This document shows, in pieces, positions 566-19,287 of a DNA stretch of 35,957 nt; the first letter of the stretch is position 1, and each line of letters starts with the position of its first letter. A model generated the notes under the pieces. It saw only the letters and a program-made list of their open reading frames with translations. It was not told the origin of the DNA and did no database searches. The DNA is taken from the NCBI GenBank assembly GCA_947378425.1, contig CANCJV010000040.1, positions 1-35,957 of the forward strand, given 5' to 3'. The stretch is from Synechococcaceae cyanobacterium. Its GTDB lineage: Bacteria > Cyanobacteriota > Cyanobacteriia > PCC-6307 > Cyanobiaceae. The position numbers were made by a program, and so were the translations under genes.

Positions 566-2125
566 ATGGATAACTCGCCTTACTGGGCCAGATACCTTGA
601 ACCCGCTGCGGTGTTCCTGCCCTCCCGAGCCCTCGCCAGCCTGATCGGCGTGTTCCTGCTGCTGCCAGGGACATCCCTGGCGGGATCGCAACCTGGGGCA
701 GAGGGCACCCTGCCTGCGGAACTGCGCGACGCCCGCAGCCTGCTCCGAGGAGCCCAGAGGCTGACCCTGACGGAGGCGGTGGGATCCAGCCTGCGCCAAA
801 ATCCCACGCTGCAGGCCTCCTTCGCCACGATTCAGGCGAGCGAATGGGAACTGATCGCCAATCAACGCCGCTGGCTGCCGACGGCCTCCGTGCAGGCCAG
901 CCCGGGCACCACCCTGCTGGGCCAGGTCTTTGACACGACCGTTGCCAACTATCCAAACAACACCAGCACCTCCTTCGCCACCAGCACGTACAACAGCAGT
1001 TACAACAATTTCAGCAACTACAGCAATGCATCCCTGGGCCTGAGCCTCAGCTGGAGCTTCTTCGATCCCAGCCGACAACCCGCGATCAACACGGCTGACG
1101 CCACTCTGAAGGCCCAGAAGCTGACGTTCAATGTTGTGGCACGAAGCCTGGTACTCAACACGGAAACTCTTTACAACACGCTCAATGAAACCCAGCAACT
1201 GATCAACGCCTATGAGCAGATCTATCTTCAGAACCAACGCCAATTGAATCTTGTCAATGCTCAATTCAAAGCTGGCATGACCAACATTGGCGATGCCGAA
1301 CAGAAGAAAACCCAGCTCCTGAACCAACTGAACCAACTTATCCTTTTATACCGGCAGCAAGCCCGCGACGCCTCCGAGCTGGCCGCCGCCGTTGGAGCCG
1401 AGCCCGGCAGCGCCGTGCTGCCGGCCGAGCAGCCCCCAGAGCCACCCGCCTGGCCCCTCAGCCTGGAGGCCACAGTGCGGGAAGGCCTACGACTGCGGGA
1501 AGAAATCCAGGCCAGTCTGGCGGAAGCCGCCGCGGCCCAGTGGGATGCCCGGCGCCTGGTCAACACCTATCTGCCGGTGCTGATGCTGACCGGCACGGCC
1601 TCTGGCTACCGATGGCGAGGGACCTTCGGCGCCAACGTGGGCCAGGATTCCTCTCCTTACTACAGCCGACAGTACGCGGCAGATGCCAGCGTCGGGCTCG
1701 GGCTGCGCTGGGATTTCCTTGATGGCGGCATCCGCGGAGCCCAGGCGAAACAGGCTGACTTCCAGGCCAAGGCGCTGCAAAGTCAGGCCCAGCAGGATCG
1801 CCTCAGTGTGGGCAATCAAATACGCAGCAGCTACGCCACTTACGTAACAGCCAGAGTGGGCCTGCCGGTGGCTCAGCTTGCCTACGCCAGCTCCCAGAAG
1901 GCCGTGCTGGTGGCTGGCAAACGTTATGAAGTGGGCATCGGCACCATGAGCGACCTGATTCAGGCCACCACGCAGCTGGGGGAGGCCGCCAGCAATCTGA
2001 GTGCGATGCGGCTGAGCTACAGCAATGCCATTGCTGAGCTCTATCGCTATTCAGCCCAGTGGCCGACCGCCAACCGGAGCGAAATCGTCCGGGGGCTCCA
2101 GGCCCTGCAGCAGAAGAATCGATGA
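566..2125 (+). CDS. TolC-like outer membrane efflux protein of the secretion cassette
   Basis: This is a predicted outer-membrane channel of a type I secretion system, the exit duct for substrate pumped by the two ABC proteins downstream. The frame is open further upstream, but the ATG at 566 places a hydrophobic signal segment (ASLIGVFLLLPGTSLAGS) close to the N-terminus, so I chose it (about 519 residues). The mature part begins with the typical OEP opening LTLTEAVGSSLRQNPTLQAS and carries two long Gln/Ala/Asn-rich helical repeats, as in TolC family members. An Asn/Ser/Tyr-rich stretch around residues 130-155 may be an extracellular loop. The stop overlaps the next ATG (ATGA at 2122-2125), so adaptor translation is probably coupled. 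The family is clear; assignment to this particular exporter rests on gene order. Confidence 0.85.
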   Translation: MDNSPYWARYLEPAAVFLPSRALASLIGVFLLLPGTSLAGSQPGAEGTLPAELRDARSLLRGAQRLTLTEAVGSSLRQNPTLQASFATIQASEWELIANQRRWLPTASVQASPGTTLLGQVFDTTVANYPNNTSTSFATSTYNSSYNNFSNYSNASLGLSLSWSFFDPSRQPAINTADATLKAQKLTFNVVARSLVLNTETLYNTLNETQQLINAYEQIYLQNQRQLNLVNAQFKAGMTNIGDAEQKKTQLLNQLNQLILLYRQQARDASELAAAVGAEPGSAVLPAEQPPEPPAWPLSLEATVREGLRLREEIQASLAEAAAAQWDARRLVNTYLPVLMLTGTASGYRWRGTFGANVGQDSSPYYSRQYAADASVGLGLRWDFLDGGIRGAQAKQADFQAKALQSQAQQDRLSVGNQIRSSYATYVTARVGLPVAQLAYASSQKAVLVAGKRYEVGIGTMSDLIQATTQLGEAASNLSAMRLSYSNAIAELYRYSAQWPTANRSEIVRGLQALQQKNR

Positions 2126-3528
2126 CGAAGTCTGCCGATCCCTTGACGCCTCACACCGGTGGCGCCAGGCCGGGTGCCGTGGAGCTGATCTCTGCACCCC
2201 TGCGCCTCGCGATTGCGATCGCCTTGCTGATCACCGGCGGCGGCGTGGCCTGGACATGCCTGGCGCGAATCCCTGTCTATGTCAACGGCACGGCCTACAT
2301 GATCAGGCTGGGGGACATCGGCGGCCTCGCAGCCCTCACGGATGGGCAGATCCACTATCAATTCTCCGCCTCCCAGCTGATCCGCCGACCTCTCTTCGAG
2401 CGGCTCTATGCCCTGATCCAGACTCCGAAAGCCCTGAGCGGCGAACAGGCCACGACCCTGTCCAGAGAACTGCTGAACACGCGCCCCGCAGGTCCCCGTC
2501 TTGACGTCAGTCGCACCTATCCAGGCCTGGTCCCGCAGGGACAACTGCTGGCCTGGATTGATTCGCCCCTGGATCGCAACAACCTGGAGTCCAGCCTTCA
2601 ATCCTACGATCAGGCCAACAGAGACCTGAGCAGCCAGCAAGCCGAGCTGACAAAACTAAGCAAAAAGATCAACCTAAAACTCCAACTCCTCAAGCAACAA
2701 CTTAAATCCGAGACGGACTACCTGAACGACATCAATAGCTTGTTTAAAATACATTACGCCAGCCGCGCCAACGTACTGGCCCAGAAATCGAAAGTCGACG
2801 ACATCAAAACAAACATCATCAGCGAGCAAGAGGAACTCACCGCCAACGCCCAGAAAGCGATTGAGGCCCAAACAACTCTGCAGCAGGCCCTGGTCAACCT
2901 GCAGACCCAACTGAACGATTATGTGGCTCGTAATTTTATTTTTGCCACTTCTCCGCTCTACATCGTTGACATCACGACGCCACAGTTTGGCCTTGCCAGA
3001 AGACTGGACAATGTCTTGCATATCTCCAATCAAAAGCTCAACTACTTGCCTGCACATGTCCCTGGCTTCCTGAGCCAGAGCGATGCCAATCAGGTTTCCA
3101 GAGGCATGAAGGTGATGCTGACACCCGTGGGCATGGATCGAGCCCAGTTCGGCGGCATCGTCGGCACCGTGCGACATGTCAGCACTCTGCCCTCCAACCT
3201 GGATCAGATCGCCGAACGCAGTGGATCCCTGGCCATTGCCCAGGAGGTGACGTCGATGATTCCCGACCCGGTCAGGGTCGATCTGAGCCTGGAGCGCAAT
3301 CCCCGGGACAGGGAACCGAATCATGGCGGCTTCCGCTGGTCGTCCCCAGGTTCACCGCCCTTCGCCATCGGTGTCGGCGGCCAGTTGAGCCTCCAGGTCA
3401 CCACCCAGCGGATTCGCCCGATCAGCCTGCTGATTCCCTTTGTGCTCAAGGTCTCGGGCGCCAGTCCTCCCTCGATTCCGCCGCAGCAGACCCGCAGCTA
3501 CCAACCCACTCCCCCTCCGAGCCGATGA
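2122..3528 (+). CDS. HlyD-like periplasmic adaptor, NHLM bacteriocin secretion type
   Basis: This is a membrane fusion protein expected to bridge the inner-membrane ABC pumps and the TolC-like channel. About 468 residues from the ATG that overlaps the tolC stop. One transmembrane helix lies near residues 27-46 (LRLAIAIALLITGGGVAW). A first half-barrel/lipoyl-like segment ends in GQLLAWIDSPLDRNNLESSL, followed by a coiled-coil hairpin of about 120 residues (roughly 160-280, rich in Gln, Leu and Lys) and a C-terminal beta domain with SRGMKVMLTP. This resembles the NHLM secretion-protein branch of the HlyD family more than classical HlyD. The coiled-coil DNA (about 2650-2880) is clearly more AT-rich than the surrounding genes. 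The last 4 bases overlap the next gene. Confidence 0.8.
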   Translation: MTKSADPLTPHTGGARPGAVELISAPLRLAIAIALLITGGGVAWTCLARIPVYVNGTAYMIRLGDIGGLAALTDGQIHYQFSASQLIRRPLFERLYALIQTPKALSGEQATTLSRELLNTRPAGPRLDVSRTYPGLVPQGQLLAWIDSPLDRNNLESSLQSYDQANRDLSSQQAELTKLSKKINLKLQLLKQQLKSETDYLNDINSLFKIHYASRANVLAQKSKVDDIKTNIISEQEELTANAQKAIEAQTTLQQALVNLQTQLNDYVARNFIFATSPLYIVDITTPQFGLARRLDNVLHISNQKLNYLPAHVPGFLSQSDANQVSRGMKVMLTPVGMDRAQFGGIVGTVRHVSTLPSNLDQIAERSGSLAIAQEVTSMIPDPVRVDLSLERNPRDREPNHGGFRWSSPGSPPFAIGVGGQLSLQVTTQRIRPISLLIPFVLKVSGASPPSIPPQQTRSYQPTPPPSR

Positions 3529-5726
3529 TGCGGTGGCGCCGATCACGACAGGGCGGCAGGATTGATGGGATCCTGGAGACCGAGGCCAACGAATCCGGAG
3601 CGGTCGCTCTGGGGGTCGTACTGGCGTTCCACAGGCGATATCTGGGGCTGACCAAACTGAAGAACGACTGTGGCGTCACCCGTGATGGCACCACCGTCAA
3701 CAAGTTGCTGGCGGCGGCCGCCCTGCATGGCCTCGAGGGCGCCATTCAAGCGGACACCCAACCCCAGGCCTTGCTGGAACTGGAGCGCTCTGGCCGCCTG
3801 CCGGCGATCGCCGTCACCGACGACAACCGCTTTCTGGTGCTGTTGCGCTGGAATCGCCAGGGCCTGCAGGTGTTCGATACGGCCCGCGGCCCCCTGCGCC
3901 TGCGCCCCGACCAGCTGCGGGCTCGTGAGCTCCTGCTGCTGGAGCCCGGCCCGGACTTCCAGCCCTTCGGCAAACCCGCCTCGATCTGGGCCGCGTTGCT
4001 GCGACTGCTGTGGCCCCTGAAAGGGGAGCTGGCCCTGATGGTCCTGATTGCCAGCGCCTCTGTGGTGCCGCTGCTGATGATCGCCGGCTGCACCTCCCAG
4101 TTCATCGATGCCTTTCTGCAGCAGCAGCGCTTCTCCTTCGGCATTCCGATTGCCTGGCTGGTGTTGATCGCCGTGGTGGTGGGGCTGCTGCTGAACCTGT
4201 TTCAGGACCTGCTGGAGCGACGCCTGGAATATGTACTGACGCGCAGTTTTGCCGCCGACATCTTTGAATTTGCCTTCTCCGCCGATTACCCCTACTACCT
4301 GCAGCGTCGCAGTGCGGAACTTGCGGGGAGGCTGAACTTTGCCATGTACATCCCTAATCTGGTCATCAGCCAGTTCAGCTCTGCCTGCCTGGGACTGTGG
4401 ACAGGGATACTGCTGGTGGCGTTTTCCTTTCTGATTTCGCCGATTCTTTTTGCCCTTTTGCTGGCCGGCTTCATCCTGGCAATCGCTTACAACGCCTGGA
4501 TTGCCTCAAAACTATCGATCAACAATCATATCCTGACGGCCGAAGGAAACCAGGCCGCCGGCATCGGCGTGCAGGCCATCACCAACATCGAATCAATAAA
4601 ATCTTCAGGACTTGAATACAGCTTCTTGCGCGATTGGCAGAATCACTATCTTGAAAGTATTCGCCAACGCCAGATTGTCGGCAAGGATTTGATCAAGTCG
4701 GCTATTTCTGTCAATGGCTCGATCTTCGCTATTACGGCAACTCTGCTGGGCATCGGTGGCCTTTTGATCATGAATGGCAGCCTTTCCCTCGGCGCCCTGC
4801 TGGCCTTTCTGTTCCTGCAATCGCAGATCAACAACGCCATCTATCAGATTCCGAACATCAGCAACAGCTGGCAGCAGACACAAGGCATGATGCGGTGCCA
4901 CCACGGCCTCACCGCTGCACCCCGCGATCCCTACCAGAGGGCTTTTGAGCGGGTCTCTGATCTACCGATGGAATCGGAAAAGCTGGCTGGAACGATTGAG
5001 CTTGTCGGCGTGAACTACGCCTTCAGCCCGGTGGATGATCCCTACATCTTGGATCTCAATATTCAGGTCAAGCCAGGTGAGCATCTCGCCCTGGTTGGCA
5101 GCAGCGGGTCTGGCAAATCAACGATCATCCGCATGCTGGCTGGATTTTATCGACCCAGCTCAGGTCAATACCTGGTTGGAGGCAGGGAATGGCTATCGAT
5201 TCCCGATGCCACCATTCGCACATCTCTTGCCTACGTGCCTCAGGATGTCTTCATCTTCAATACATCCTTCGAAGATAACATCAAACTTTGGCAGCCAGGT
5301 TATCGGCATGCCGATGTCGTGGCAGCGGCCCAGGCCGCGAACCTACACGAAGAAATCATGAATTACAGCGAGTCTTACAACACCCTGTTGATGGACATGG
5401 GTGCCAATATCAGTGGTGGCCAACGGCAGCGCCTGGAGATTGCCAGGGCCCTGATCAAGAAACCGACGATCCTGCTGCTCGATGAAGCCACCAGCGCCCT
5501 CGACAACAATTCTGAGAAGCAGGTTCTCGCTGCCGTCAAGAAACAAGGCATCACCGTGGTCAGCGTCGCCCATCGCCTCACGGCTGCCCTGCAAAGCGAT
5601 CAGGTGGTGGTGCTGGACCAGGGCAAGGTACTGGAACAGGGGCACCCCCAGGAACTGCTGGCTCGCCACGGTGCCTTCCATCGCTTGGTGATGGCCGAAG
5701 CCCAGCCGCAGAGCCAGGATTCCTGA
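3525..5726 (+). CDS. NHLM-type ABC exporter with degenerate C39 peptidase-like domain
   Basis: This is an inner-membrane ABC permease/ATPase of the peptidase-containing exporter type, 733 residues. Residues ~12-125 align by motif with the C39 bacteriocin-processing domain. The catalytic Cys of the usual E-C-G motif is Ser24 (ANESGAVAL), and the catalytic His of the H-F/Y-V-V-L motif is Arg102 (NRFLVLL). The Asp-containing FDTARGPLRL segment is kept. A six-helix permease region follows (~160-430). The ATPase has Walker A GSSGSGKST (525-533), signature NISGGQRQRL (~628), Walker B ILLLDEAT (~649) and an H-loop VAHRL, so transport should work. Leader cleavage by this domain should not, which makes it like the non-cleaving C39-like domain of HlyB. 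The ATG overlaps the adaptor stop. Function is inferred from family and operon. Confidence 0.85.
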   Translation: MMRWRRSRQGGRIDGILETEANESGAVALGVVLAFHRRYLGLTKLKNDCGVTRDGTTVNKLLAAAALHGLEGAIQADTQPQALLELERSGRLPAIAVTDDNRFLVLLRWNRQGLQVFDTARGPLRLRPDQLRARELLLLEPGPDFQPFGKPASIWAALLRLLWPLKGELALMVLIASASVVPLLMIAGCTSQFIDAFLQQQRFSFGIPIAWLVLIAVVVGLLLNLFQDLLERRLEYVLTRSFAADIFEFAFSADYPYYLQRRSAELAGRLNFAMYIPNLVISQFSSACLGLWTGILLVAFSFLISPILFALLLAGFILAIAYNAWIASKLSINNHILTAEGNQAAGIGVQAITNIESIKSSGLEYSFLRDWQNHYLESIRQRQIVGKDLIKSAISVNGSIFAITATLLGIGGLLIMNGSLSLGALLAFLFLQSQINNAIYQIPNISNSWQQTQGMMRCHHGLTAAPRDPYQRAFERVSDLPMESEKLAGTIELVGVNYAFSPVDDPYILDLNIQVKPGEHLALVGSSGSGKSTIIRMLAGFYRPSSGQYLVGGREWLSIPDATIRTSLAYVPQDVFIFNTSFEDNIKLWQPGYRHADVVAAAQAANLHEEIMNYSESYNTLLMDMGANISGGQRQRLEIARALIKKPTILLLDEATSALDNNSEKQVLAAVKKQGITVVSVAHRLTAALQSDQVVVLDQGKVLEQGHPQELLARHGAFHRLVMAEAQPQSQDS

Positions 5727-5730
5727 GCCG

Positions 5731-7923
5731 ATGGAACAGTCCCAATCCCGCCCCGATCCCTCTGCCTACCGGGGCCCATCGCAACAGGTGCTCGCCAACC
5801 TGGATCGCACGCTGTACCGCCTGCAACGTCGCAAATCCTGGGAGGGTCTGGGCGATGACAATCTGCTGCTGCTCAGCCAGGCCCTGAGGCTGCTGGGCAT
5901 GACAACCCAGCGGCTCTACCCCCATCCCGGCAGTTTTCAGGATCTGCTCGAACACAATGACATCTACAATCGCAGTATCGCCCTTCCCGAAGATTTGGGA
6001 AAGGGGGAATACCAGCTGCTGATTCTGTTTGACGCTGCCGATGGCAAGCCCTTCCTGCTGAGCCGCAGCCGCCGTCTCAACCAGATCCTCACGGTGGAGA
6101 AGGGCCAGGTGGTGCCTATTGCCAACGGACTGCCCAGCCTGCAGGACAGGGCAATCGAGATCTACCCGATGATGCCGGCAGCGCTGCACAATCCCCTGGA
6201 TGTGCTGTTCTTCACCTACAGCTCCGAGCTCGGAGCCCTGGCGGCTCTGGGAGTGATCTGCCTGGTGGTGGTGGCCTTCAGTCTGTCAATTCCGATCCTG
6301 ACCAACATCCTCGTTTCGAGGGTGTTGCCCGAAACCGACTACAGCCTCCTGCTGGAGAGCCTGGTGGTGGTGATCCTGATCATCACTGCCTCCGTGACCA
6401 GTCAGTACCTGCAGGGATTGATGACCCTCAGACTGGAGACCATTTCCGATCTACGGCTACAGACTGCGCTCTGGGACCGGTTCACGAAACTACCGCTACT
6501 TTTCATCAGAAACTATAGCGTCGGCGATCTAAACAGTAGAGTTTCAGCAGTTTATCGAATCCGCAGACTGATCAATGCCGATTCCCTGACCAGTCTTCTG
6601 GCGGCCATCTTTTCGCTCACGTTTTTCATCCTGATGTTTACTTATAAACCTCAGCTTGCGATCTGGGCCGCGCTTCTTGTCGTCGCCGTATATGCAGCCA
6701 TCTTCCAGCTGGCCCGCTCAGCGATTGTGATTCAGGACACCATCAATCCGATCATGGCAAGAATCTCCAACTTTGCCTATCACTCGATCTGCGGCGTCGC
6801 CCAGATCCGCACCCTGGGCAACGAAGCTTTCATCCTCAATCGCTGGATGGGTCTGTTCACCGAATTCGCCCATGCCAGCCTGCGAGCCAATGCCCTTGAC
6901 CAACTGATTGATCTCTTGACGGATCTGCTGGGCACCGCCGGCTCACTGCTGATGTTCAGCGTCGTGATCATTCAGGTGCTGGCCTTTCCGGCTGATTTTT
7001 CCAGTCCTTCCTCCATTGCCAGTTTCGTTGCCTTCTATGCGGCCTTCATCGCTTTCTGCGCTGCCATGTCTTCGGCCACCACATCCCTCGCCGATGTGTT
7101 CGCCAGTGCGGCCTCACTCTGGAAACGCTGCGAGCCGATCATCTATGAACCGGTTGAATCTGGCTATAGCCCCGAAGCGATCCATCATGAGGTTGAGGGC
7201 AACTATTCCATCTCCGGTCTTTGCTTCCAATTCCCCGGCAGTGCACAAAAAACCTTTGACAATCTCAACTTCGAGGTCAAAGCCGGCTCCTATGTGGCCA
7301 TCACCGGCCCCAGTGGTGCCGGTAAATCCACCCTGCTCAAGCTGATCACTGGCCTGGTGCCCCCCAGCAGCGGCGAGATCCTGGTGGACAACGTGCCCCT
7401 ACGCCTGCTGGCGATCCGCGCCTATCGCCGTCAGCTGGGCATCGTCATCCAGGACGCCCGGCTCGACAACGGCACGATTCTCGAGGTGGTGCGCGGCGGC
7501 CGCAACGATTCGGAGCAAGCGGTCTGGCACGCCCTGGAGATGGCCTGCGTCGCCGAGGAAGTGCATCGCATGCCGCTGGGCCTCCAGACCCAGATCCTCA
7601 ACGGAGGCAGCAACATCTCCGGCGGCCAGCGCCAGCGCCTGGCCCTGGCCCGGGCGCTGCTGCCCGAGCCGCGGGTGCTGCTGCTCGATGAAGCCACCAG
7701 TGCGATCGACAACCTCTCCCAGCAGGCCATCTCCGACACCATCGATGGCCTTGGGATCACCCGCATCGCCATCGCCCACCGTCTCTCCACCCTGCGCAAC
7801 GCCGACCAGGTGCTGGTGATCGAGAACGCCACCATCTCCCAGCGCGGCAGCTTCGACGACCTGCTGCAGCAGGAGGGCTATCTGCGCCGCATGGTGGCCC
7901 TGGAATCCCGCAGCAGCGGCTGA
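5731..7923 (+). CDS. NHLM-type ABC transporter, second permease/ATPase subunit
   Basis: This is the second inner-membrane ABC protein of the cassette, 730 residues, beginning 4 bases after the previous stop. The N-terminal ~150 residues are a soluble domain without peptidase motifs, as in the second ABC component of NHLM systems. Transmembrane helices run from about residue 165 to 450. The ATPase domain has Walker A GPSGAGKST (~526), signature NISGGQRQRL (~628), Walker B VLLLDEAT (~649) and H-loop AIAHRLSTL. It likely forms a heterodimer with the upstream C39-like ABC protein. The permease DNA around 6480-6660 is more AT-rich than the ATPase part. The substrate is unknown, and no precursor peptide gene is adjacent. 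Confidence 0.85.
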   Translation: MEQSQSRPDPSAYRGPSQQVLANLDRTLYRLQRRKSWEGLGDDNLLLLSQALRLLGMTTQRLYPHPGSFQDLLEHNDIYNRSIALPEDLGKGEYQLLILFDAADGKPFLLSRSRRLNQILTVEKGQVVPIANGLPSLQDRAIEIYPMMPAALHNPLDVLFFTYSSELGALAALGVICLVVVAFSLSIPILTNILVSRVLPETDYSLLLESLVVVILIITASVTSQYLQGLMTLRLETISDLRLQTALWDRFTKLPLLFIRNYSVGDLNSRVSAVYRIRRLINADSLTSLLAAIFSLTFFILMFTYKPQLAIWAALLVVAVYAAIFQLARSAIVIQDTINPIMARISNFAYHSICGVAQIRTLGNEAFILNRWMGLFTEFAHASLRANALDQLIDLLTDLLGTAGSLLMFSVVIIQVLAFPADFSSPSSIASFVAFYAAFIAFCAAMSSATTSLADVFASAASLWKRCEPIIYEPVESGYSPEAIHHEVEGNYSISGLCFQFPGSAQKTFDNLNFEVKAGSYVAITGPSGAGKSTLLKLITGLVPPSSGEILVDNVPLRLLAIRAYRRQLGIVIQDARLDNGTILEVVRGGRNDSEQAVWHALEMACVAEEVHRMPLGLQTQILNGGSNISGGQRQRLALARALLPEPRVLLLDEATSAIDNLSQQAISDTIDGLGITRIAIAHRLSTLRNADQVLVIENATISQRGSFDDLLQQEGYLRRMVALESRSSG

Positions 7924-7990: not shown

Positions 7991-8491
7991 ATGGCGAAGG
8001 GTCCGGGCAGGAAAGGGAACGGCACCAAAGCACAGGATCCCGCCCACAAGCTGCTGGCGGACAACCGCTTCGCCCGTCATCAGTACGAGATCCTCGAGAC
8101 CCTCGAATGCGGCATCGAGCTGCTGGGGACGGAGGTGAAATCAATCCGCGCCGGCCAGTGCAACCTGCGCGATGGCTTCTGCCTGATCAGAAACGGCGAG
8201 CTGCAGCTGCACAACGTGCACATCTCGCCCCACAGTCACGCCGGTCGCTTCTTCAACCACGAGCCATTGCGGGTGCGCAAACTGCTGGCCCATCGCCGCG
8301 AGATCGACAAACTGCGCATCGCCCTCGAGCAGAAGGGCCTCACCCTGATTCCTCTCAATGTCCATCTCAAGGGCTCCTGGATCAAGGTGAGCCTGGGCCT
8401 GGGCAAGGGCCGCAAGCTGCACGACAAGCGCCACGAGGAGAAGCGCAAAACCGAAGCCAAGGAGGCCCGCGCCGCCATTGCCCGGCTGTAG
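7991..8491 (+). CDS. smpB: SsrA-binding protein SmpB
   Basis: SmpB binds the tRNA-like domain of tmRNA and delivers it to stalled ribosomes for trans-translation. The 166-residue length fits the family. Visible family motifs are [40 protein letters not shown] and the basic C-terminal helix [16 protein letters not shown]. The N-terminal ~20 residues are a Lys/Gly-rich extension. The palindrome GCGATCGC (7982-7989) sits one base ahead of the ATG, and I see no clear Shine-Dalgarno sequence. It lies 67 bases downstream of the secretion cassette and converges with the kinase-like gene, so it is probably functionally independent of both. Confidence 0.95.
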
Positions 8492-10878: not shown

Positions 10879-11879
10879 CAGCCGCTCACCACCGGGAAAC
10901 GCTGGGGTTGGTTCAGACCGCGGCCAGCGAGCCAGTCCCGGTCGTAAAGGCGGGATCGATAGCGATCACCGCCGTCGCACAGCACCGTGACGATCCGATG
11001 ACCCGGCCCGAGGCGGCGGGCCGTCTCGACCGCCGCGGCCACATTGATCCCCACCGAGCCCCCCATGAACAGGCCCTCCTTCCACAGCATCTGGTAGATG
11101 GTGCCTAGCGCCTCCTGGTCGTCAATGCGCACGGCGTCGTCGATGGGGGCATCGGCAAGATTGGCGGTGACTCGGCTATTGCCGATGCCTTCGGTGATCG
11201 AGTTGCCCTCGGCGTGCAGAGCGCCGCTGGTGGCCCAGTTGTAGAGAGCGCTGCCATGGGGATCGGCCAGGACGCAGCGCACGGAATCGCGGCGCTCCTT
11301 CAGGAACAGGGCCACACCGGCATAGGTGCCACCCGTGCCGGTGGCCGCCACCCAGGCGTCGATGCGGCCGTCGCACTGCTCCCAGATCTCGGGCGCGGTG
11401 CTGTTGTAATGGGCGCGGCGATTGGCGAGGTTGTCGAACTGGTTGGCCCAGAGCGCGCCGGGGATCTCGGCGGCGATGCGACCGGACAGGCGCACGTAGT
11501 TGTTGGGATCGGCGTAGGGAACGGCCGGCACCGTGCGCACCTCGGCCCCCAGGCTGCGCAGCAGGCCGATCTTCTCCGCCGACTGGGTCTCGGGGATGAC
11601 GATCAGGGCGCGATAGCCGCGGGCATTGCAGAGGTGGGCCAGGCCGATGCCGGTGTTGCCGGCGGTGCCCTCGACGACCGTGCCACCGGTCCGCAGCTCC
11701 CCAGAGGCCTCAGCTTCCATCAGAATGCCCAGGGCAGCCCGATCCTTGACCGAACCGCCCGGATTCATGAACTCGGCCTTGCCGAGGATCTCGCAGCCGG
11801 TGAGTTCACTGAGGGCCCGCAGCCGGATCAAGGGTGTGTGACCCACGGCCTCGCTGAACCCCTCGCTGATGGCGCCCAT
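10878..11879 (-). CDS. PLP-dependent cysteine synthase / cysteine desulfhydrase family protein (Cds1-like)
   Basis: A fold-type II PLP enzyme of the CysK superfamily, 333 residues from the ATG chosen so that the protein opens at MGAISEGFSEAVGHTPLIRL; an upstream extension of 35 residues is not homologous. The PLP Schiff-base lysine is Lys45 in NPGGSVKDR. The substrate loop reads EGTAGNTG (~70-77). This wording and AEFMNPGGSVKDR resemble the Cds1-type cysteine desulfhydrases more than housekeeping CysK (which has TSGNTG). The likely reaction is release of sulfide from cysteine, or synthesis of cysteine from O-acetylserine; sequence alone does not separate these. It is divergent from egtB (79-bp gap) and overlaps the kinase-like gene by ATGA. 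Confidence 0.85.
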   Translation of the reverse strand: MGAISEGFSEAVGHTPLIRLRALSELTGCEILGKAEFMNPGGSVKDRAALGILMEAEASGELRTGGTVVEGTAGNTGIGLAHLCNARGYRALIVIPETQSAEKIGLLRSLGAEVRTVPAVPYADPNNYVRLSGRIAAEIPGALWANQFDNLANRRAHYNSTAPEIWEQCDGRIDAWVAATGTGGTYAGVALFLKERRDSVRCVLADPHGSALYNWATSGALHAEGNSITEGIGNSRVTANLADAPIDDAVRIDDQEALGTIYQMLWKEGLFMGGSVGINVAAAVETARRLGPGHRIVTVLCDGGDRYRSRLYDRDWLAGRGLNQPQRFPVVSG

Positions 11880-11958
11880 GGAGCCCGCCTGCCAAATCGA
11901 CGTGTGTGGGCGGATCGTAGAGAACATCCCTAAGGTCAGCCCCAGAGAGCGCGACGTC

Positions 11959-13290
11959 ATGGGCTTGCAGACCGATGCCGGCACCGACTGCGTCGCCGCT
12001 GATTCCGACGTCGTCGCCAGTGAATCCGCCTTGCTCGAAGGCGCTGATGCTCATGGCCGGGACAGCCCCGCGACCCTGATCGCCGGCCTGCGGGCCCGGT
12101 TGCGGCAGGTGCGCCGGCGCAGCGTCACCCTGATCGAACCCCTGCAGCCGGAGGACCTCTGCCTGCAGGGCATGGCGGATGCCAGTCCGCCCAAATGGCA
12201 TCTCGGCCACAGCAGCTGGTTCTTCGAGACCTTTCTGCTGACGCCGCACCTGGCCGGTTGGCAGGGGGCGGACCCGCGCTGGGGCTACCTGTTCAACTCG
12301 TACTACGACGCCGTCGGCGCCCGCCATCCGCGGCCCCAGCGGGGCCTGCTCAGCCGCCCCCCGATCGAGGCGGTGCTGGCCTGGCGCCAGCGGATCGATC
12401 AGGGCCTGGAGGAGCTGCTCAGCCAGCTTGAGCAGCAGCCCCCGGAGCGGGCCCAACCGCTGCTGGCGTTGCTGGAGCTGGGTCTTCAGCACGAACAGCA
12501 GCACCAGGAACTGCTGTTGATGGACCTGCTCGACGGCTTCAGCCGCAACCCACTCGAGCCCACCTACCTCGACGGAAGCGACGGGCCTGAGGCGATCTAT
12601 GCGGCGGCGATCGGCGAGCCGTCGGGCGCTGGCGCGACCGGAGCGAGCTGGCAGACCCACGAGGGGGGCCTGGTGGAGATCGGCCATGGCGAAGGCGATC
12701 CCGCCTTCCACTTCGACAACGAGGCACCGCGCCATCGCCAGTGGCTGGAGCGCTTTGAAATCGCCCCGACCCTGGTCCGCAACGGCGAGATGGAGGCCTT
12801 CATCGCCGACGGCGGCTACCGCCGGCCGGAGCTGTGGATGAGTGAGGGCTGGGCCACGGTGCAGCAACGGCTCTGGCAAGCGCCCCGCTACTGGCGTGGC
12901 GCTTGCGAATTCACCCTGGCCGGCCTGAGGCCACGCCGACCCGAGGCGCCGGTGCGCCATCTGAGCTGGTTCGAGGCCGATGCCTTCGCCCGCTGGGCCG
13001 GCGCCAGGCTGCCCAGCGAGGCGGAATGGGAACATGCCAATCGGAGCGAGCCACTGCCCCAGGCCTTCGCCGCCCTTTGGCAGTGGACCTCCAGCCCCTA
13101 CCGTCCCTATCCGGGCTTCAGCCCCGCCAGCGGCGCCGTCGGCGAATACAACGGCAAGTTCATGTCCTCCCAGTTCGTGCTGCGCGGCAGCGCCTTTCTC
13201 ACCCCAGCCGGCCACGCCCGGCTCACCTACCGCAACTTCTTCCCGCCGGCGAGTCGCTGGATGGCGGCGGGCCTGCGCCTGGCCCGCTGA
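11959..13290 (+). CDS. egtB: ergothioneine biosynthesis protein EgtB (iron-dependent sulfoxide synthase)
   Basis: EgtB joins hercynine to a cysteine-containing thiol using Fe(II) and oxygen, the central step of ergothioneine synthesis. About 443 residues from ATG 11959; the first ~35 residues are poorly conserved in appearance, so the true start could be slightly later. The N-terminal DinB-like domain gives the three-histidine iron site: WHLGHS (80-85) and HEQQHQE (178-184). The C-terminal formylglycine-generating-enzyme-like domain shows VRHLSWFEADAFARWAG, RLPSEAEWE, ALWQWTSSPYRPYPGF, GEYNGKFMSSQFVLRG and TYRNFFPPASRW. The stop overlaps the egtD start (TGATG), giving coupled translation. No egtA, egtC or egtE is in the window, so the sulfur donor (cysteine or gamma-glutamylcysteine) is not decided. 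Confidence 0.93.
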   Translation: MGLQTDAGTDCVAADSDVVASESALLEGADAHGRDSPATLIAGLRARLRQVRRRSVTLIEPLQPEDLCLQGMADASPPKWHLGHSSWFFETFLLTPHLAGWQGADPRWGYLFNSYYDAVGARHPRPQRGLLSRPPIEAVLAWRQRIDQGLEELLSQLEQQPPERAQPLLALLELGLQHEQQHQELLLMDLLDGFSRNPLEPTYLDGSDGPEAIYAAAIGEPSGAGATGASWQTHEGGLVEIGHGEGDPAFHFDNEAPRHRQWLERFEIAPTLVRNGEMEAFIADGGYRRPELWMSEGWATVQQRLWQAPRYWRGACEFTLAGLRPRRPEAPVRHLSWFEADAFARWAGARLPSEAEWEHANRSEPLPQAFAALWQWTSSPYRPYPGFSPASGAVGEYNGKFMSSQFVLRGSAFLTPAGHARLTYRNFFPPASRWMAAGLRLAR

Positions 13291-14321
13291 TGGCCAGCCC
13301 CCTCGCCATCGCGGCCCCCCGGTTGATCGATCTGCATCCGCCCGCCGCCGACCTGCGGCGCCTGGTGGTGGCCGGCATGCAGCGCCAGCCCCGTCAGCTG
13401 CCGGCCTGGCTGCTCTACGACGACCGGGGCTCCCAGCTGTTCGACGCCATCTGCCAGCAGCCGGAATACGGCCTCACCCGCACCGAAACGGCCCTGCTGC
13501 AGCAACGGGCTCCCGAGCTGGCCCGGGCCCTGGGACCCGGGGTGCTGGTGGAGTTCGGGGCCGGCAGCGCCAGAAAGGTGAGCCCCCTGCTGCAGGAACT
13601 GAATCCCCACGCCTACGTGGCCCTGGACATCAGCGCCGGCCATCTGCTGGCGGCCTGCCAGGCGCTGCAGCAACGCCATCCGACGACGCCGGTGCTCGGC
13701 ATCTGCTGCGACTACAGCGAGCTCCAGCGCCTCCCCACCCACCCCTGGCTGGAGCAGCGACGGCTGGGCTTCTACCCGGGCAGCTCGATCGGCAACTTCA
13801 GCCCTGAGGAAGCCGTGACCCTGCTGCGGCAGTTTCTACGGCTGCTGGGGCCGGACAGCCGCCTGCTGATCGGCATCGACCAACCCAAGGCGGTGGAGCG
13901 ACTGGAGGCGGCGTACAACGATCAAGCCGGCTACTCGGCCGCTTTCGCCCTCAATCTGCTGAGCCGGCTGAACCGCGATCTGGAGGGCGATTTCCGCCCC
14001 GAAGCCTTCCGCTACCGCGCCTGGTGGCAAGCGGACTCCAGCCGCATCGCCATGGCCCTGATCAGCCGCGAGCCCCAGACCGTGTCCCTGGCGGGACAGC
14101 AGTGGGCCTTCGCGGCCGGCGAACCGCTGATCACCGAATACAGCGTCAAATACACCCCGGACACCTTCGGCCAGCTGGCGCTACGGGCAGGCTGGCGCAG
14201 CCTGCAGCGATGGAGCGATGGCTCAGACGACCTGAGCCTGCATCTGCTGGCACCAGCCGAGGATCGGGCCTCAGGGACTGATCTGGAGCCAGACTCAAGC
14301 CACCAGCACAGCGACCGATGA
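13290..14321 (+). CDS. egtD: L-histidine N-alpha-methyltransferase EgtD
   Basis: EgtD trimethylates the alpha-amino group of histidine with S-adenosylmethionine to give hercynine, the EgtB substrate. 343 residues from the ATG overlapping the egtB stop, close to the family's usual length. Visible motifs are LLYDDRGSQLFDAICQQPEY near the N-terminus, SAM site VEFGAGSARK (~86-95), GICCDYSEL, and FYPGSSIGNFSPEEA (~161-175), then the C-terminal part EYSVKYTPDTFGQLALRAGW. It is the second gene of a four-gene coupled operon. S-adenosylhomocysteine from this reaction would be handled by AhcY, encoded about 12 kb away. The gene looks intact. Confidence 0.95.
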   Translation: MASPLAIAAPRLIDLHPPAADLRRLVVAGMQRQPRQLPAWLLYDDRGSQLFDAICQQPEYGLTRTETALLQQRAPELARALGPGVLVEFGAGSARKVSPLLQELNPHAYVALDISAGHLLAACQALQQRHPTTPVLGICCDYSELQRLPTHPWLEQRRLGFYPGSSIGNFSPEEAVTLLRQFLRLLGPDSRLLIGIDQPKAVERLEAAYNDQAGYSAAFALNLLSRLNRDLEGDFRPEAFRYRAWWQADSSRIAMALISREPQTVSLAGQQWAFAAGEPLITEYSVKYTPDTFGQLALRAGWRSLQRWSDGSDDLSLHLLAPAEDRASGTDLEPDSSHQHSDR

Positions 14322-16790: not shown

Positions 16791-18311
16791 TTATCCCATT
16801 GCGTCGGATCCCGCCTCGAGCCGGCCCTCGGGACGCAGCAACGGGAAGGCGATCACATCGCGGATCGAGGGACTGTCCGTCAGCAGCATCACCAGGCGAT
16901 CGATGCCGATGCCCAGGCCGCCGGTGGGGGGCATGCCCACCTCGAGGGCATGGAGGAAATCCTCATCCACGGTCTGAGCCTCGGGATCACCGGCGCGGCG
17001 GCGCTCCTGCTGGGCCTCCAGGCGACGACGCTGATCCACCGGATCGATCAGCTCGCTGAAGGCGTTGGCGGTTTCACGGCCGACGATGAACAGCTCGAAG
17101 CGCTCCACCAGGCCGGGCTTGCTGCGATGGGTCCGGGCCAGAGGCGAGTTCTCCACCGGATAGTCGAGCACGAAGGTGGGCTGGATCAGGGAGGTTTCGA
17201 CCCGCTGCTCAAACGCCTCCACCAGCAGCCGACCGACACTGTCGGCGGTCTCAGGCACCACCAGATCGTGGGCCTCCATCGCCGCAGCCGCCTCGGCACG
17301 ACTGGTGAAGGCATTGAAATCAATGCCGGTGGCCCGCTGCACCAGCTCATGCATGGTGGCGCGGGTCCAGGGGGGCGTGAGATCGATGCTGGTGCCCTGG
17401 TACTCGATCACCGTGCTGCCGCACACCACCTGGCAACAGGTGGCGATCAGGTCCTCGGTGAGCGCCATCATGTCGTGGTAGTCGGCGTAGGCCTGGTAGA
17501 TCTCCACCGAGGTGAATTCGGGGTTGTGGCGGGTGCTCACCCCTTCATTGCGGAAGATGCGGCCCAGCTCGTAGACCCGCTCGAACCCGCCCACCACAAG
17601 ACGCTTGAGATGCAGTTCGGTGGCGATGCGCAGGGTCAGCGGCAGATCGAGGGCGTTGTGATGGGTGGCAAAGGGGCGGGCATCGGCGCCACCGGCCTGG
17701 CTCTGCAGCACCGGTGTCTCGATCTCGAGGAAATCCCGGTCGTCCAGCCAGCGGCGCATGGTGCTCACCAGCAAGGCACGGCGCCGGAAGGTTTCGCGCG
17801 TGTGGGGCGAGACAATCAGATCGAGATAGCGCTGGCGGTAGCGCTTCTCCACATCCGCCAGGCCGTGCCACTTGTCGGGCAGGGGCTGGAGCGACTTGCT
17901 CAGCATCCGCCAGTCGCCCACCTTCACCGACAGCTCACCGCGATCGGTGCGCTTGAGGGTGCCCTGCACACCGATCCAGTCCCCGGCATCGGTGAGCGTG
18001 GTGATCTGGCTGAACACCTCCGGGTTGTCGGGATGGGCCGCCTCCAGGCTGGCCTTGTCGATGTAGAGCTGGATCGTGCCGGTTTCATCGGCCAGGGTGA
18101 AGAAGGCGAGTTTGCCCATCACCCGCCGGGTCATCAGCCGGCCGGCCACCGCCACGGCCTCGGCCCGCTCCTCCCCCTTGCCCAGATCGGCGTGGGCCTG
18201 CTGCAGCTGGGCCGTGCGATGGCTGGGGGCGAAGCTCAGCGCATAGGGGGGCTGGCCCAGGGCCTCCAGGGCCCGGGCCTTCTCCAGACGGGTCTCGCGC
18301 AGATCCGACAA
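16791..18311 (-). CDS. lysS: lysyl-tRNA synthetase, class II
   Basis: LysRS charges tRNA-Lys. Class II motifs are visible: anticodon-binding OB domain ([24 protein letters not shown]), motif 1 region ([18 protein letters not shown]), motif 2 ([15 protein letters not shown], then [14 protein letters not shown]) and motif 3 ([13 protein letters not shown]). I place the start at a TTG codon (18311), which reads [12 protein letters not shown], the expected LysRS opening, and gives 506 residues, the normal length. The first ATG in frame (18449) would add 46 residues of low-complexity sequence and overlap the divergent FkbM gene. I see no strong Shine-Dalgarno sequence at the TTG. Identity is certain; the start is moderately sure. 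Confidence 0.93.
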
Positions 18312-18447
18312 GGCAGGCGGGTGGGGATGGGGACAGAGGCCATCCTGCAGGACCGACGGAGCCGAGGCGGACGCCAGGCCCTCGGCCCGAGCACAATCAA
18401 GCCAGAGCCGCCGACCGACAACGATGCCAGCGCAGGAGTCCAGCCCC

Positions 18448-19287
18448 ATGAGCAGCGACCCTGGGGCCGATGTCTGCCGACTTCGTTACGACTTCCGGGG
18501 CAGGTCAACCCCCCTATGCATGAATCGCTGCGGCGGCAAAGACCAGGTCGTCCGCCAGATCGAGGCCCAGGGATGGCGGAGCTATGAGGCGCCGCTGCCG
18601 GTGATCCTCAGCCAACTGGTGAGCTGCCGGCCGAGCGTGTTTCTCGACATCGGCGCCAACACCGGCTTCTACAGCCTGGTGGCCGCCCTGGCCGGCGCGA
18701 CCGGGATCCGGGCCTTTGAGCCGGTGCCGTTCATCGCCGATCTGCTCGAAGCCAATATCGGCCACACCCTCCTGGACGACCGGCAGCGGATCAGCGTGCA
18801 GCGTGAGGCCCTGTCCGATCAGGAGGGAGAAGCCTCCCTGCACATGCCCGATCAGGGGCATGGCTTGATCGAAACCTCCGCCTCCCTCGATCCCAGCTTC
18901 CGCCGCCACCACTCGGATGTCTTTCCTGTCTCAGTGACCACGCTGGATCGCCATCTCGAACGCAGCCCCCTGCCACCGCAACACCAGCTGGTGTTGAAAA
19001 TCGACGTCGAGAACTGTGAGGACAGGGTGCTGCGGGGCGGCGAAGCCAGCATCGCCAGGCTGCGCCCGCTGATCGTGGCGGAGATCCTGCCGGGCGCGGA
19101 TCTGGCCTTCTATGAGGCCTTCCTGAGCCGTCAACGCTATCGGCACTTCGCCCTGAAAGCCCCCAGCGAGCTGGTGTCCATGGAGCGGATTGAACCCAGC
19201 CTGCAGTTCCGCGATCACCTGCTGCTGCCGCTCGAAGCGGATCCCCGGGCACTGCTGGCAAGCGGAGAACCCCAGCGGCAGGGCTGA
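18448..19287 (+). CDS. FkbM family SAM-dependent methyltransferase
   Basis: About 279 residues. The SAM-binding motif [17 protein letters not shown] is followed by [18 protein letters not shown] (motif II with acidic ribose contact), [18 protein letters not shown] and [19 protein letters not shown], all typical of FkbM O-methyltransferases that often modify sugars or lipids. The ATG at 18448 is preferred over 18424 because AGGAG (18434-18438) lies 9 bases ahead of it. It diverges from lysS and converges with rpaA, so it is probably monocistronic. The substrate is unknown. Confidence 0.85.

What the first reader, a model, noticed from the sequence alone, without database searches (positions are those of the whole stretch)
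3525..3860. NHLM exporter whose C39 peptidase domain has lost both catalytic Cys and His
In the first ABC protein the C39 motif reads E-S-G (Ser24 for Cys), and the His of the H-F-V-V-L block is Arg102, while the fold-level motifs and the whole ATPase are intact. Family knowledge says NHLM peptidase/ATPases cleave double-glycine leaders. This one should bind but not cut, as in the C39-like domain of HlyB. It may export an uncleaved or large substrate, or rely on a separate protease.
Basis: partly seen in the sequence, partly recalled or inferred. Interest (0 to 1): 0.6.

Follow-up and report, generated by a model that had tools for sequence, protein, structure and literature searches.

The report
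Peptide exporter with a dead protease
This cyanobacterial gene set encodes a complete-looking peptide-export machine whose built-in leader-cutting protease has lost its catalytic residues yet has been kept, in altered form, by several related species, so it probably holds and exports a cargo without cutting it.

Summary
In ABC1 (3525-5726, +) the C39 domain has Ser24 for the catalytic Cys and Arg102 for the catalytic His; Glu18 also replaces the oxyanion Gln, and Asp118 remains. It is no sequence error: 5 of 42 genomes of the genus share these changes. Three of 31 genomes of a second genus carry a related operon with Ser24 and Cys102. A tree without the C39 columns groups these eight proteins (100/100; one loss); 28 of 28 compared relatives keep Gln/Cys/His. 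The domain is predicted to keep the C39 fold, has its own conserved signature and is under purifying selection.

The operon is TolC-HlyD-ABC1-ABC2. I found no precursor or modifying enzyme beside it, whereas three intact relatives lie near LanM, YcaO or a double-glycine Nif11 peptide. I judge it a non-cleaving NHLM-type exporter whose C39-like domain docks cargo. The cargo is unknown. It works like HlyB's C39-like domain but arose separately. Unexpectedly, the second-genus members have also lost key ABC1 ATPase motifs while staying under purifying selection.

The parts
566..2125 (+). TolC-type outer-membrane channel; ATG at 566 preferred, the ORF is open from TTG 320
   Evidence: PF02321 137.6 bits; TIGR01844 101.7 bits, under its cut-off of 225; 44-87% identical in the 7 related operons
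2059..3528 (+). HlyD-type membrane fusion protein; start uncertain (GTG 2059 or ATG 2122)
   Evidence: TIGR03794 NHLM HlyD, E 5.6e-22, 78.2 bits, under its cut-off of 156; no Pfam match
3525..5726 (+). ABC1, C39-like/permease/ATPase subunit, 733 aa
   Evidence: ATPase motifs intact
3564..3959 (+). C39-like domain, residues 14-145 as used here; Glu18, Ser24, Arg102, Asp118 at the oxyanion/Cys/His/Asp places
   Evidence: PF03412, LahT alignment, model and fold matches
3594..3596 (+). codon of Ser24 at the catalytic Cys position
3828..3830 (+). codon of Arg102 at the catalytic His position
5731..7923 (+). ABC2, permease/ATPase subunit without a peptidase domain, 730 aa
   Evidence: TIGR03797 504 bits, under its cut-off of 709; ATPase motifs intact

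Best explanation
The four genes make an envelope-spanning exporter: an ABC1/ABC2 pair in the inner membrane, an HlyD adaptor and a TolC channel. The N-terminal domain of ABC1 descends from a C39 leader peptidase but should not cleave, since nucleophile, base and oxyanion residue are all replaced. It has been kept and remodelled, most likely as a docking or gating module that holds the cargo at the cytosolic mouth while ATP drives it out through HlyD and TolC uncleaved. The cargo is encoded elsewhere in the genome and is probably not a standard double-glycine RiPP precursor. Shown: loss of the residues, single origin, operon content, purifying selection. Predicted: the C39 fold. Inferred: no proteolysis in the cell, docking role, uncleaved export, assembly of the four proteins into one machine. 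Unknown: the cargo.
For: Active-site replacement against LahT in 5 of 5 members of the window's clade, and Ser24 in 8 of 8 of the wider clade. One origin, 100/100. C39 fold kept: pLDDT 81.6, pTM 0.81; Foldseek TMq 0.67 to LahT and 0.57 to HlyB CLD. Selection: pairwise dN/dS of the C39 part 0.11-0.37 in 9 of 10 pairs of the window's clade (the tenth pair has no amino-acid change in it) and 0.13 for L258/L259. Ten positions invariant in the dead clade but unlike the commonest residue of intact ones, plus one at the alignment edge. TolC-HlyD-ABC1-ABC2 present in all 8 loci with intact ATPase motifs in the window and in L030-L033. No precursor or RiPP enzyme found beside it, unlike the intact relatives L063, L065, L068.
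Against: No cargo, binding, transport or expression was shown. C39 is the least conserved ABC1 domain in 7 of 10 pairs of the window's clade, which also fits relaxed selection. One of the ten Nif11 peptides of the own genome (L113, a weak hit) has a GG followed by six residues, and the best one (L104) keeps a leader-like DEELQRRAG-E stretch, so a leader-type cargo is not excluded. Double-glycine leaders of other families were not searched. Three members have damaged ATPase motifs, so energised export is doubtful for them.
Confidence: 0.55

Rival explanations
1. The exporter still handles double-glycine peptides, and another protease cuts the leader (an intact C39 exporter of the same cell, or a periplasmic or extracellular protease).
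For: Six of eight genomes have another ABC1 with Q/C/H/D. Leader removal outside the transporter is known for other RiPPs (PMC10885120, abstract and passages). One weak Nif11 hit of the own genome has a GG (L113), and L104 keeps a near-leader stretch.
Against: In the window's genome PF03412 finds only this domain and one in a long-type exporter that has Ser at the His column; G178 shows no second ABC1 at E <= 1e-60. Nine of the ten PF07862 peptides of the own genome have no GG after the domain. No precursor lies beside the operon.
Confidence: 0.2
2. It is a HlyB-like exporter of a large, C-terminally signalled protein.
For: Dead C39 domains are typical of RTX exporters (PMC8277102, passages); the operon brings its own HlyD and TolC; HlyB's CLD is a fold match.
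Against: TIGR01846 (HlyB) scores 279.8 bits against 512.3 for TIGR03796. The tree places the clade among NHLM-like exporters, but no HlyB was in it. The paired ABC2 is an NHLM trait. No large protein gene was seen beside the operon in the window; RTX genes elsewhere in the genome were not searched.
Confidence: 0.12
3. It is a decaying relic.
For: C39 has the highest dN/dS of the three ABC1 domains in most pairs of the window's clade. The second-genus members have also lost ATPase residues.
Against: No stops in the four genes of the five operons tested; dN/dS well under 1 in every gene of W/L030 and L258/L259; eight genomes in two genera; ATPase motifs intact in the window's clade.
Confidence: 0.06
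4. It is still a protease, with Ser24 (or, in the second genus, a rearranged Ser/Cys pair) as the nucleophile.
For: Ser24 is invariant in 8 of 8, and a Cys stands at the former His in three.
Against: No base: Arg or Cys at 102. Asp118 is Asn in two of eight, and Gln18 is Glu in five of eight.
Confidence: 0.03

Closest known systems
NHLM export cassette TIGR03794/TIGR03796/TIGR03797 (Haft et al. 2010, PMC2887384, passages)
   Same: HlyD + C39-containing ABC + ABC without peptidase; best NCBIfam models for all three proteins
   Different: Peptidase residues lost, scores under all three cut-offs, no precursor found beside the operon, TolC in the operon
HlyB C39-like domain (3ZUA, 7SGR)
   Same: Dead C39 fold on an exporter with HlyD and TolC
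   Different: HlyB keeps His83 and stacks it on Trp77 (PMC8277102, passages); here His and the Trp of the intact relatives are gone, and the closest families are NHLM
LahT/PCAT1 type peptidase domains (6MPZ, 4RY2, 6V9Z)
   Same: Closest fold and sequence among solved structures
   Different: They have the catalytic Cys and His (LahT Cys27, His101); the window has neither
HetC of Nostoc PCC 7120 (PMC10986499, passages)
   Same: Cyanobacterial exporter with a C39 domain
   Different: HetC has a cyclic-nucleotide-binding domain and an active Cys347/His420 peptidase

Membership tests
TIGR03796 NHLM peptidase/permease/ATPase (equivalog) | Score over the curated cut-off of 853.3 bits | tested here: not met
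   512.3 bits, best of all NCBIfam models. The intact relative L063 also misses it (706.7 bits), so the failure is not special to the dead clade.
TIGR03796 NHLM peptidase/permease/ATPase (equivalog) | Catalytic Cys/His of the C39 peptidase | tested here: not met
   Ser24, Arg102
NHLM export cassette | HlyD, ABC with C39 domain and ABC without it, adjacent | tested here: met
NHLM export cassette | Linked NHLP or Nif11 double-glycine precursor | tested here: not met
   None found in the flanks read; in the own genome the two NHLP-model hits lie in one nitrile-hydratase-like ORF; 9 of 10 Nif11 peptides lack GG
HlyB-type C39-like domain | Cys lost, fold kept | tested here: met
HlyB-type C39-like domain | His kept and stacked on a conserved Trp (as described in PMC8277102) | tested here: not met
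   His is Arg102; Trp98 of the intact relatives is Thr or Asp in the dead clade. HlyB's own Trp column was not aligned here.
HlyB (TIGR01846) | Score over 725.55 bits | tested here: not met
   279.8 bits
C39-like domain exporters (functional sense) | Cargo binds the dead domain and is secreted uncleaved | not testable with these tools
   needs binding and secretion assays

The most novel reading that the evidence does not exclude
A lineage of peptide exporters has shed catalysis step by step: first the peptidase (all eight members), then, in one genus, canonical ATPase motifs (ABC1 loses the Walker B Glu, the H-loop His and the Q-loop Gln; the signature motifs of both subunits deviate), while all four genes stay under purifying selection. 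The result would be a non-cleaving, slow or barely ATP-driven gated conduit for uncleaved small proteins. One candidate cargo is the conserved Nif11 microprotein without GG that ends in GPHxLWEWxWI, present in all five genomes of the window's clade, though that link is confounded by ancestry.
Probability: 0.15. Interest if true: 0.75.

Novelty: new variant of a known kind. Interest (0 to 1): 0.5.

Why it matters
Dead C39 domains are described mainly for RTX-toxin exporters (PMC8277102, passages). Here one arose inside the NHLM-like peptide-exporter lineage and lasted long enough to appear in two genera. Paralogues with intact peptidases and the same four-gene layout live in some of the same cells (for example G181 and G170), a natural paired experiment on what a C39 domain does apart from cutting. 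A pipeline that names such a locus 'bacteriocin exporter with peptidase' would misread it.

Tried and rejected
Candidate cargo in trans: a 66-aa Nif11-leader peptide without GG (G000:C18:15165-15362) occurs full length in all 5 genomes of the window's clade and in 3 of the other 37 genus genomes; G161 has a partial copy with a stop. Control: the 8 genomes are exactly the 8 (the own genome included) with at least 93% identity to the window's class II tRNA synthetase (window 16791-18449), among the 41 of 42 with a match; the next is at 88%. So the link is not independent of ancestry, and I do not claim it.

NHLP precursor: both TIGR03793 hits of the own genome lie in one ORF that I read by eye as a nitrile-hydratase-like subunit (no family search of it). 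Rejected.

Nif11 peptides of the own genome: all ten PF07862 places were read. Nine have no GG after the domain; L113 (a weak hit, 23.9 bits) has GG followed by six residues, and L104 reads DEELQRRAGEE where a prochlorosin leader would have GG. A working note says that all ten lack GG; that is wrong and corrected here. My confidence in the best explanation is 0.55 for that reason.

Small conserved ORFs beside the operon: 231 small ORFs of 8 loci compared; the single between-group match lies antisense in ruvB. Rejected.

Viral contigs: 42 stretches matched a pattern, none encodes a relative. A comparison of whole gene contents was not possible.

Literature for a dead C39 in NHLM exporters: searches (open-access library only). 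I saw no such report in the listings or in the passages read; most listed papers were not opened.

Structure: only 5 sequences in the alignment; residues 1-16 have pLDDT under 50; side-chain geometry was not examined.

Rows dropped: one search left out L020 (short because of a stop) and 14 duplicate, partial or long-type loci before the 33-row alignment A1. The loci read overlap in part with each other and with A1.
Full report
WHAT IS THERE. The window starts at base 1 of contig C40 of a 3.6-Mb, 98.6% complete genome. Its nearest named relatives are a Synechococcus sp. UW140 MAG and two cyanobacterial MAGs at 72-73% identity in ABC1; a fourth record, at 90%, is titled Bifidobacterium breve but matches by coordinates a genome of the window's own genus (G180). 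I infer a picocyanobacterium. Genes on + are TolC (566-2125), HlyD (2059-3528), ABC1 (3525-5726) and ABC2 (5731-7923), then smpB (7991-8491). ABC1 has C39, transmembrane and ATPase domains. Its best NCBIfam model is TIGR03796, at 512 bits under the 853-bit cut-off; the intact relative L063 misses it as well (706.7 bits).

THE ACTIVE SITE. Against LahT (6MPZ) the window has Ser24 for Cys27, Arg102 for His101, Glu18 for Gln21 and Asp118 for Asp117 (roles of the LahT residues from section 9 of PMC6363468). In the alignment of 33 ABC1 N-termini all 5 members of the window's clade read E/S/R/D at the four places; the 28 others have Q, C, H and D there.

HOW WIDE. In the genus, 5 of 42 genomes hold an ABC1 of 72-100% identity. 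A profile of these five searched in 386 genomes of the phylum gave 62 places in 46 genomes. Of the 61 besides the window, 54 were read and 7 were already in the 33-row alignment: 60 have Q/C/H/D and one (G472) has Q/S/C/D. In the genus of G472, 3 of 31 genomes carry a dead domain (G472 QSCD; G538 and G553 QSCN); of the 30 places listed there 26 are Q/C/H/D, three are these, and one is Q/C/H/N. A profile of all eight searched in 400 genomes of the family gave 8 places at 253 bits or more, all already known; the next scored 87. The 17 further loci read from it are all Q/C/H/D. These surveys use profiles of this clade, so unrelated dead C39 exporters may be missed.

ONE ORIGIN. A tree from the TMD and NBD part only (36 rows, 573 columns) puts the eight dead proteins in one clade with 100/100 support; all 200 bootstrap trees need one change. 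The clade lies among intact relatives; its sister is not firm (86/89) and some branches are long. In L258 and L259 the operon lies between TPR/M20-like genes on one side and ruvB, smpB and a kinase gene on the other (labels by likeness to genes of the window and L030). The window has the operon before smpB and the kinase gene; L030 has M20, TPR, ruvB, then the operon. In L033 it sits elsewhere, after HPPK and FolB genes, and L031 is alike. A shared place in two genera suggests old vertical descent, or a repeated insertion site.

DECAY OR REUSE. No stops in the four genes of the five operons tested. Pairwise NG86 dN/dS of the C39 part is 0.11-0.37 in 9 of 10 pairs of the window's clade, the tenth having no amino-acid change there, and 0.13 for L258/L259. 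In the window's clade C39 is the least conserved ABC1 domain in 7 of 10 pairs (60-70% against 73-76% identity between the two subgroups); in 14 pairs of intact relatives it is the least conserved in only one, L011/L010. So selection on it has relaxed or shifted. Eight of eight dead domains share S24, V27, A28, G30, A34, T52, K60, L62, T119 and W155, where the commonest residue of intact ones differs (L165 at the edge too), and keep E23, G25, A26, R53-D54-G55, P93, N101 and G122. AlphaFold gives a C39 fold (pLDDT 81.6, pTM 0.81). By Foldseek, LahT and PCAT1 come first; by VIA-align, PCAT1 Z 19.3 (2.2 A, 134 residues), LahT Z 17.3 (1.9 A, 125), HlyB's CLD Z 13.3 (2.7 A, 118). I read this as a kept and altered domain, not debris.

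SURROUNDINGS AND CARGO. Intact relatives: L068 has LanM directly after ABC2 (TIGR03897, 737.9 bits); L065 has YcaO- and TfuA-related proteins upstream, the TfuA one under its cut-off; L063 has a Nif11 peptide with a double-glycine motif upstream of TolC. The intact loci L064, L066 and L067 showed no RiPP enzyme that I recognised in the ORF lists, without a family search, so the contrast is not absolute. Dead-clade flanks: the window, L030 and L033 were partly searched by family, L231, L258 and L259 only read as ORF lists; no precursor or RiPP enzyme was found, and no small ORF is shared across the groups. L033 has a sulfotransferase and a polyketide-synthase-like ORF, the latter by eye. In the window's genome PF03412 finds this domain and one in a long-type exporter that has Ser at the His column. 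The NHLP-leader hits lie in one nitrile-hydratase-like ORF. Of ten Nif11 peptides nine have no GG; one weak hit has. A Nif11 peptide without GG shared by all five genomes was tested as cargo, but its presence follows ancestry.

SECOND SURPRISE. The window's clade has intact ATPase motifs in both subunits. In the three second-genus members ABC1 keeps Walker A, but Walker B DE reads DV, the H-loop HR reads ER, the Q-loop Gln reads Glu and the signature SGGQ reads CNSQ or CSSQ. ABC2 keeps Walker A and DE, but its signature SGGQ reads SRGE or NSAE. Between L258 and L259 dN/dS is 0.08-0.14 for each gene and 0.15 for the ABC1 NBD. Heterodimeric exporters with one degenerate ATP site are known (TAP, TM287/288; recalled, no call), but here the better site also has a changed signature.

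MECHANISM. I take it as a non-cleaving NHLM-type exporter whose C39-like domain docks cargo. Not cutting is close to certain (about 0.95). A docking or gating role is likely (about 0.65). The cargo is unknown. It works like HlyB's CLD, where His83 is kept and stacked on Trp77 (PMC8277102, passages), but is not a member: TIGR01846 scores lower, the His is lost, and the relatives are NHLM-like.

KNOWN OR NEW. PMC2887384 (passages) defines the HlyD/peptidase-ABC/ABC cassette. PMC3140520 (passages) surveys cyanobacterial C39 exporters. PMC10783134 (passages) suggests that prochlorosins may leave without dedicated transporters. PMC10986499 (passages) divides exporters into those with active and with degenerate C39 domains. 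In the searches I saw no report of a dead-C39 NHLM clade; the library is open-access only. I rate it a new variant of a known kind.

Noticed in passing
L231:10379-14619, L258:8576-12813, L259:6737-10974: The second-genus relatives have ABC1 ATPase domains without the Walker B Glu, H-loop His and Q-loop Gln, and changed signature motifs in both subunits, yet low dN/dS between L258 and L259.
   Followed up: partly
L133 (G000:C18:15165-15362) and homologues in 7 other genomes of the genus: A 66-aa Nif11-leader peptide with a conserved tail GPHxLWEWxWI and no GG; its leader part is up to 73% identical to GG-type leaders.
   Followed up: partly
L104 (G000:C4:102834-103040) and L113 (G000:C47:13947-14057): Two other Nif11 peptides of the own genome: one reads DEELQRRAGEE where a leader would have GG, one has GG followed by only six residues.
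   Followed up: no
L039 (G000:C1:138302-138631, long-type exporter): The only other PF03412 hit of the genome, at 22.8-26.5 bits; Ser stands at the His column and the Cys region does not align.
   Followed up: partly
L030: A public MAG contig titled Bifidobacterium breve carries the 90% identical operon with ruvB and smpB and matches genome G180 of the window's own genus; the title looks wrong.
   Followed up: partly
L042:6152-8399 (G000:C1): Neighbouring ORFs that read as a nitrile-hydratase-like set; the alpha-like one caused both NHLP-leader hits.
   Followed up: no
L033:15965-22133: A sulfotransferase gene and a polyketide-synthase-like ORF (by eye) downstream of the exporter in L033.
   Followed up: no
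window 11869-14321: Overlapping ORFs with DinB_2/FGE-sulfatase and histidine-specific methyltransferase domains, like an EgtB/EgtD pair (name recalled).
   Followed up: no
L237 (G544:C24:14695-15147): A C39 domain with Gln, Cys and His in place but Asn at the catalytic Asp position.
   Followed up: no
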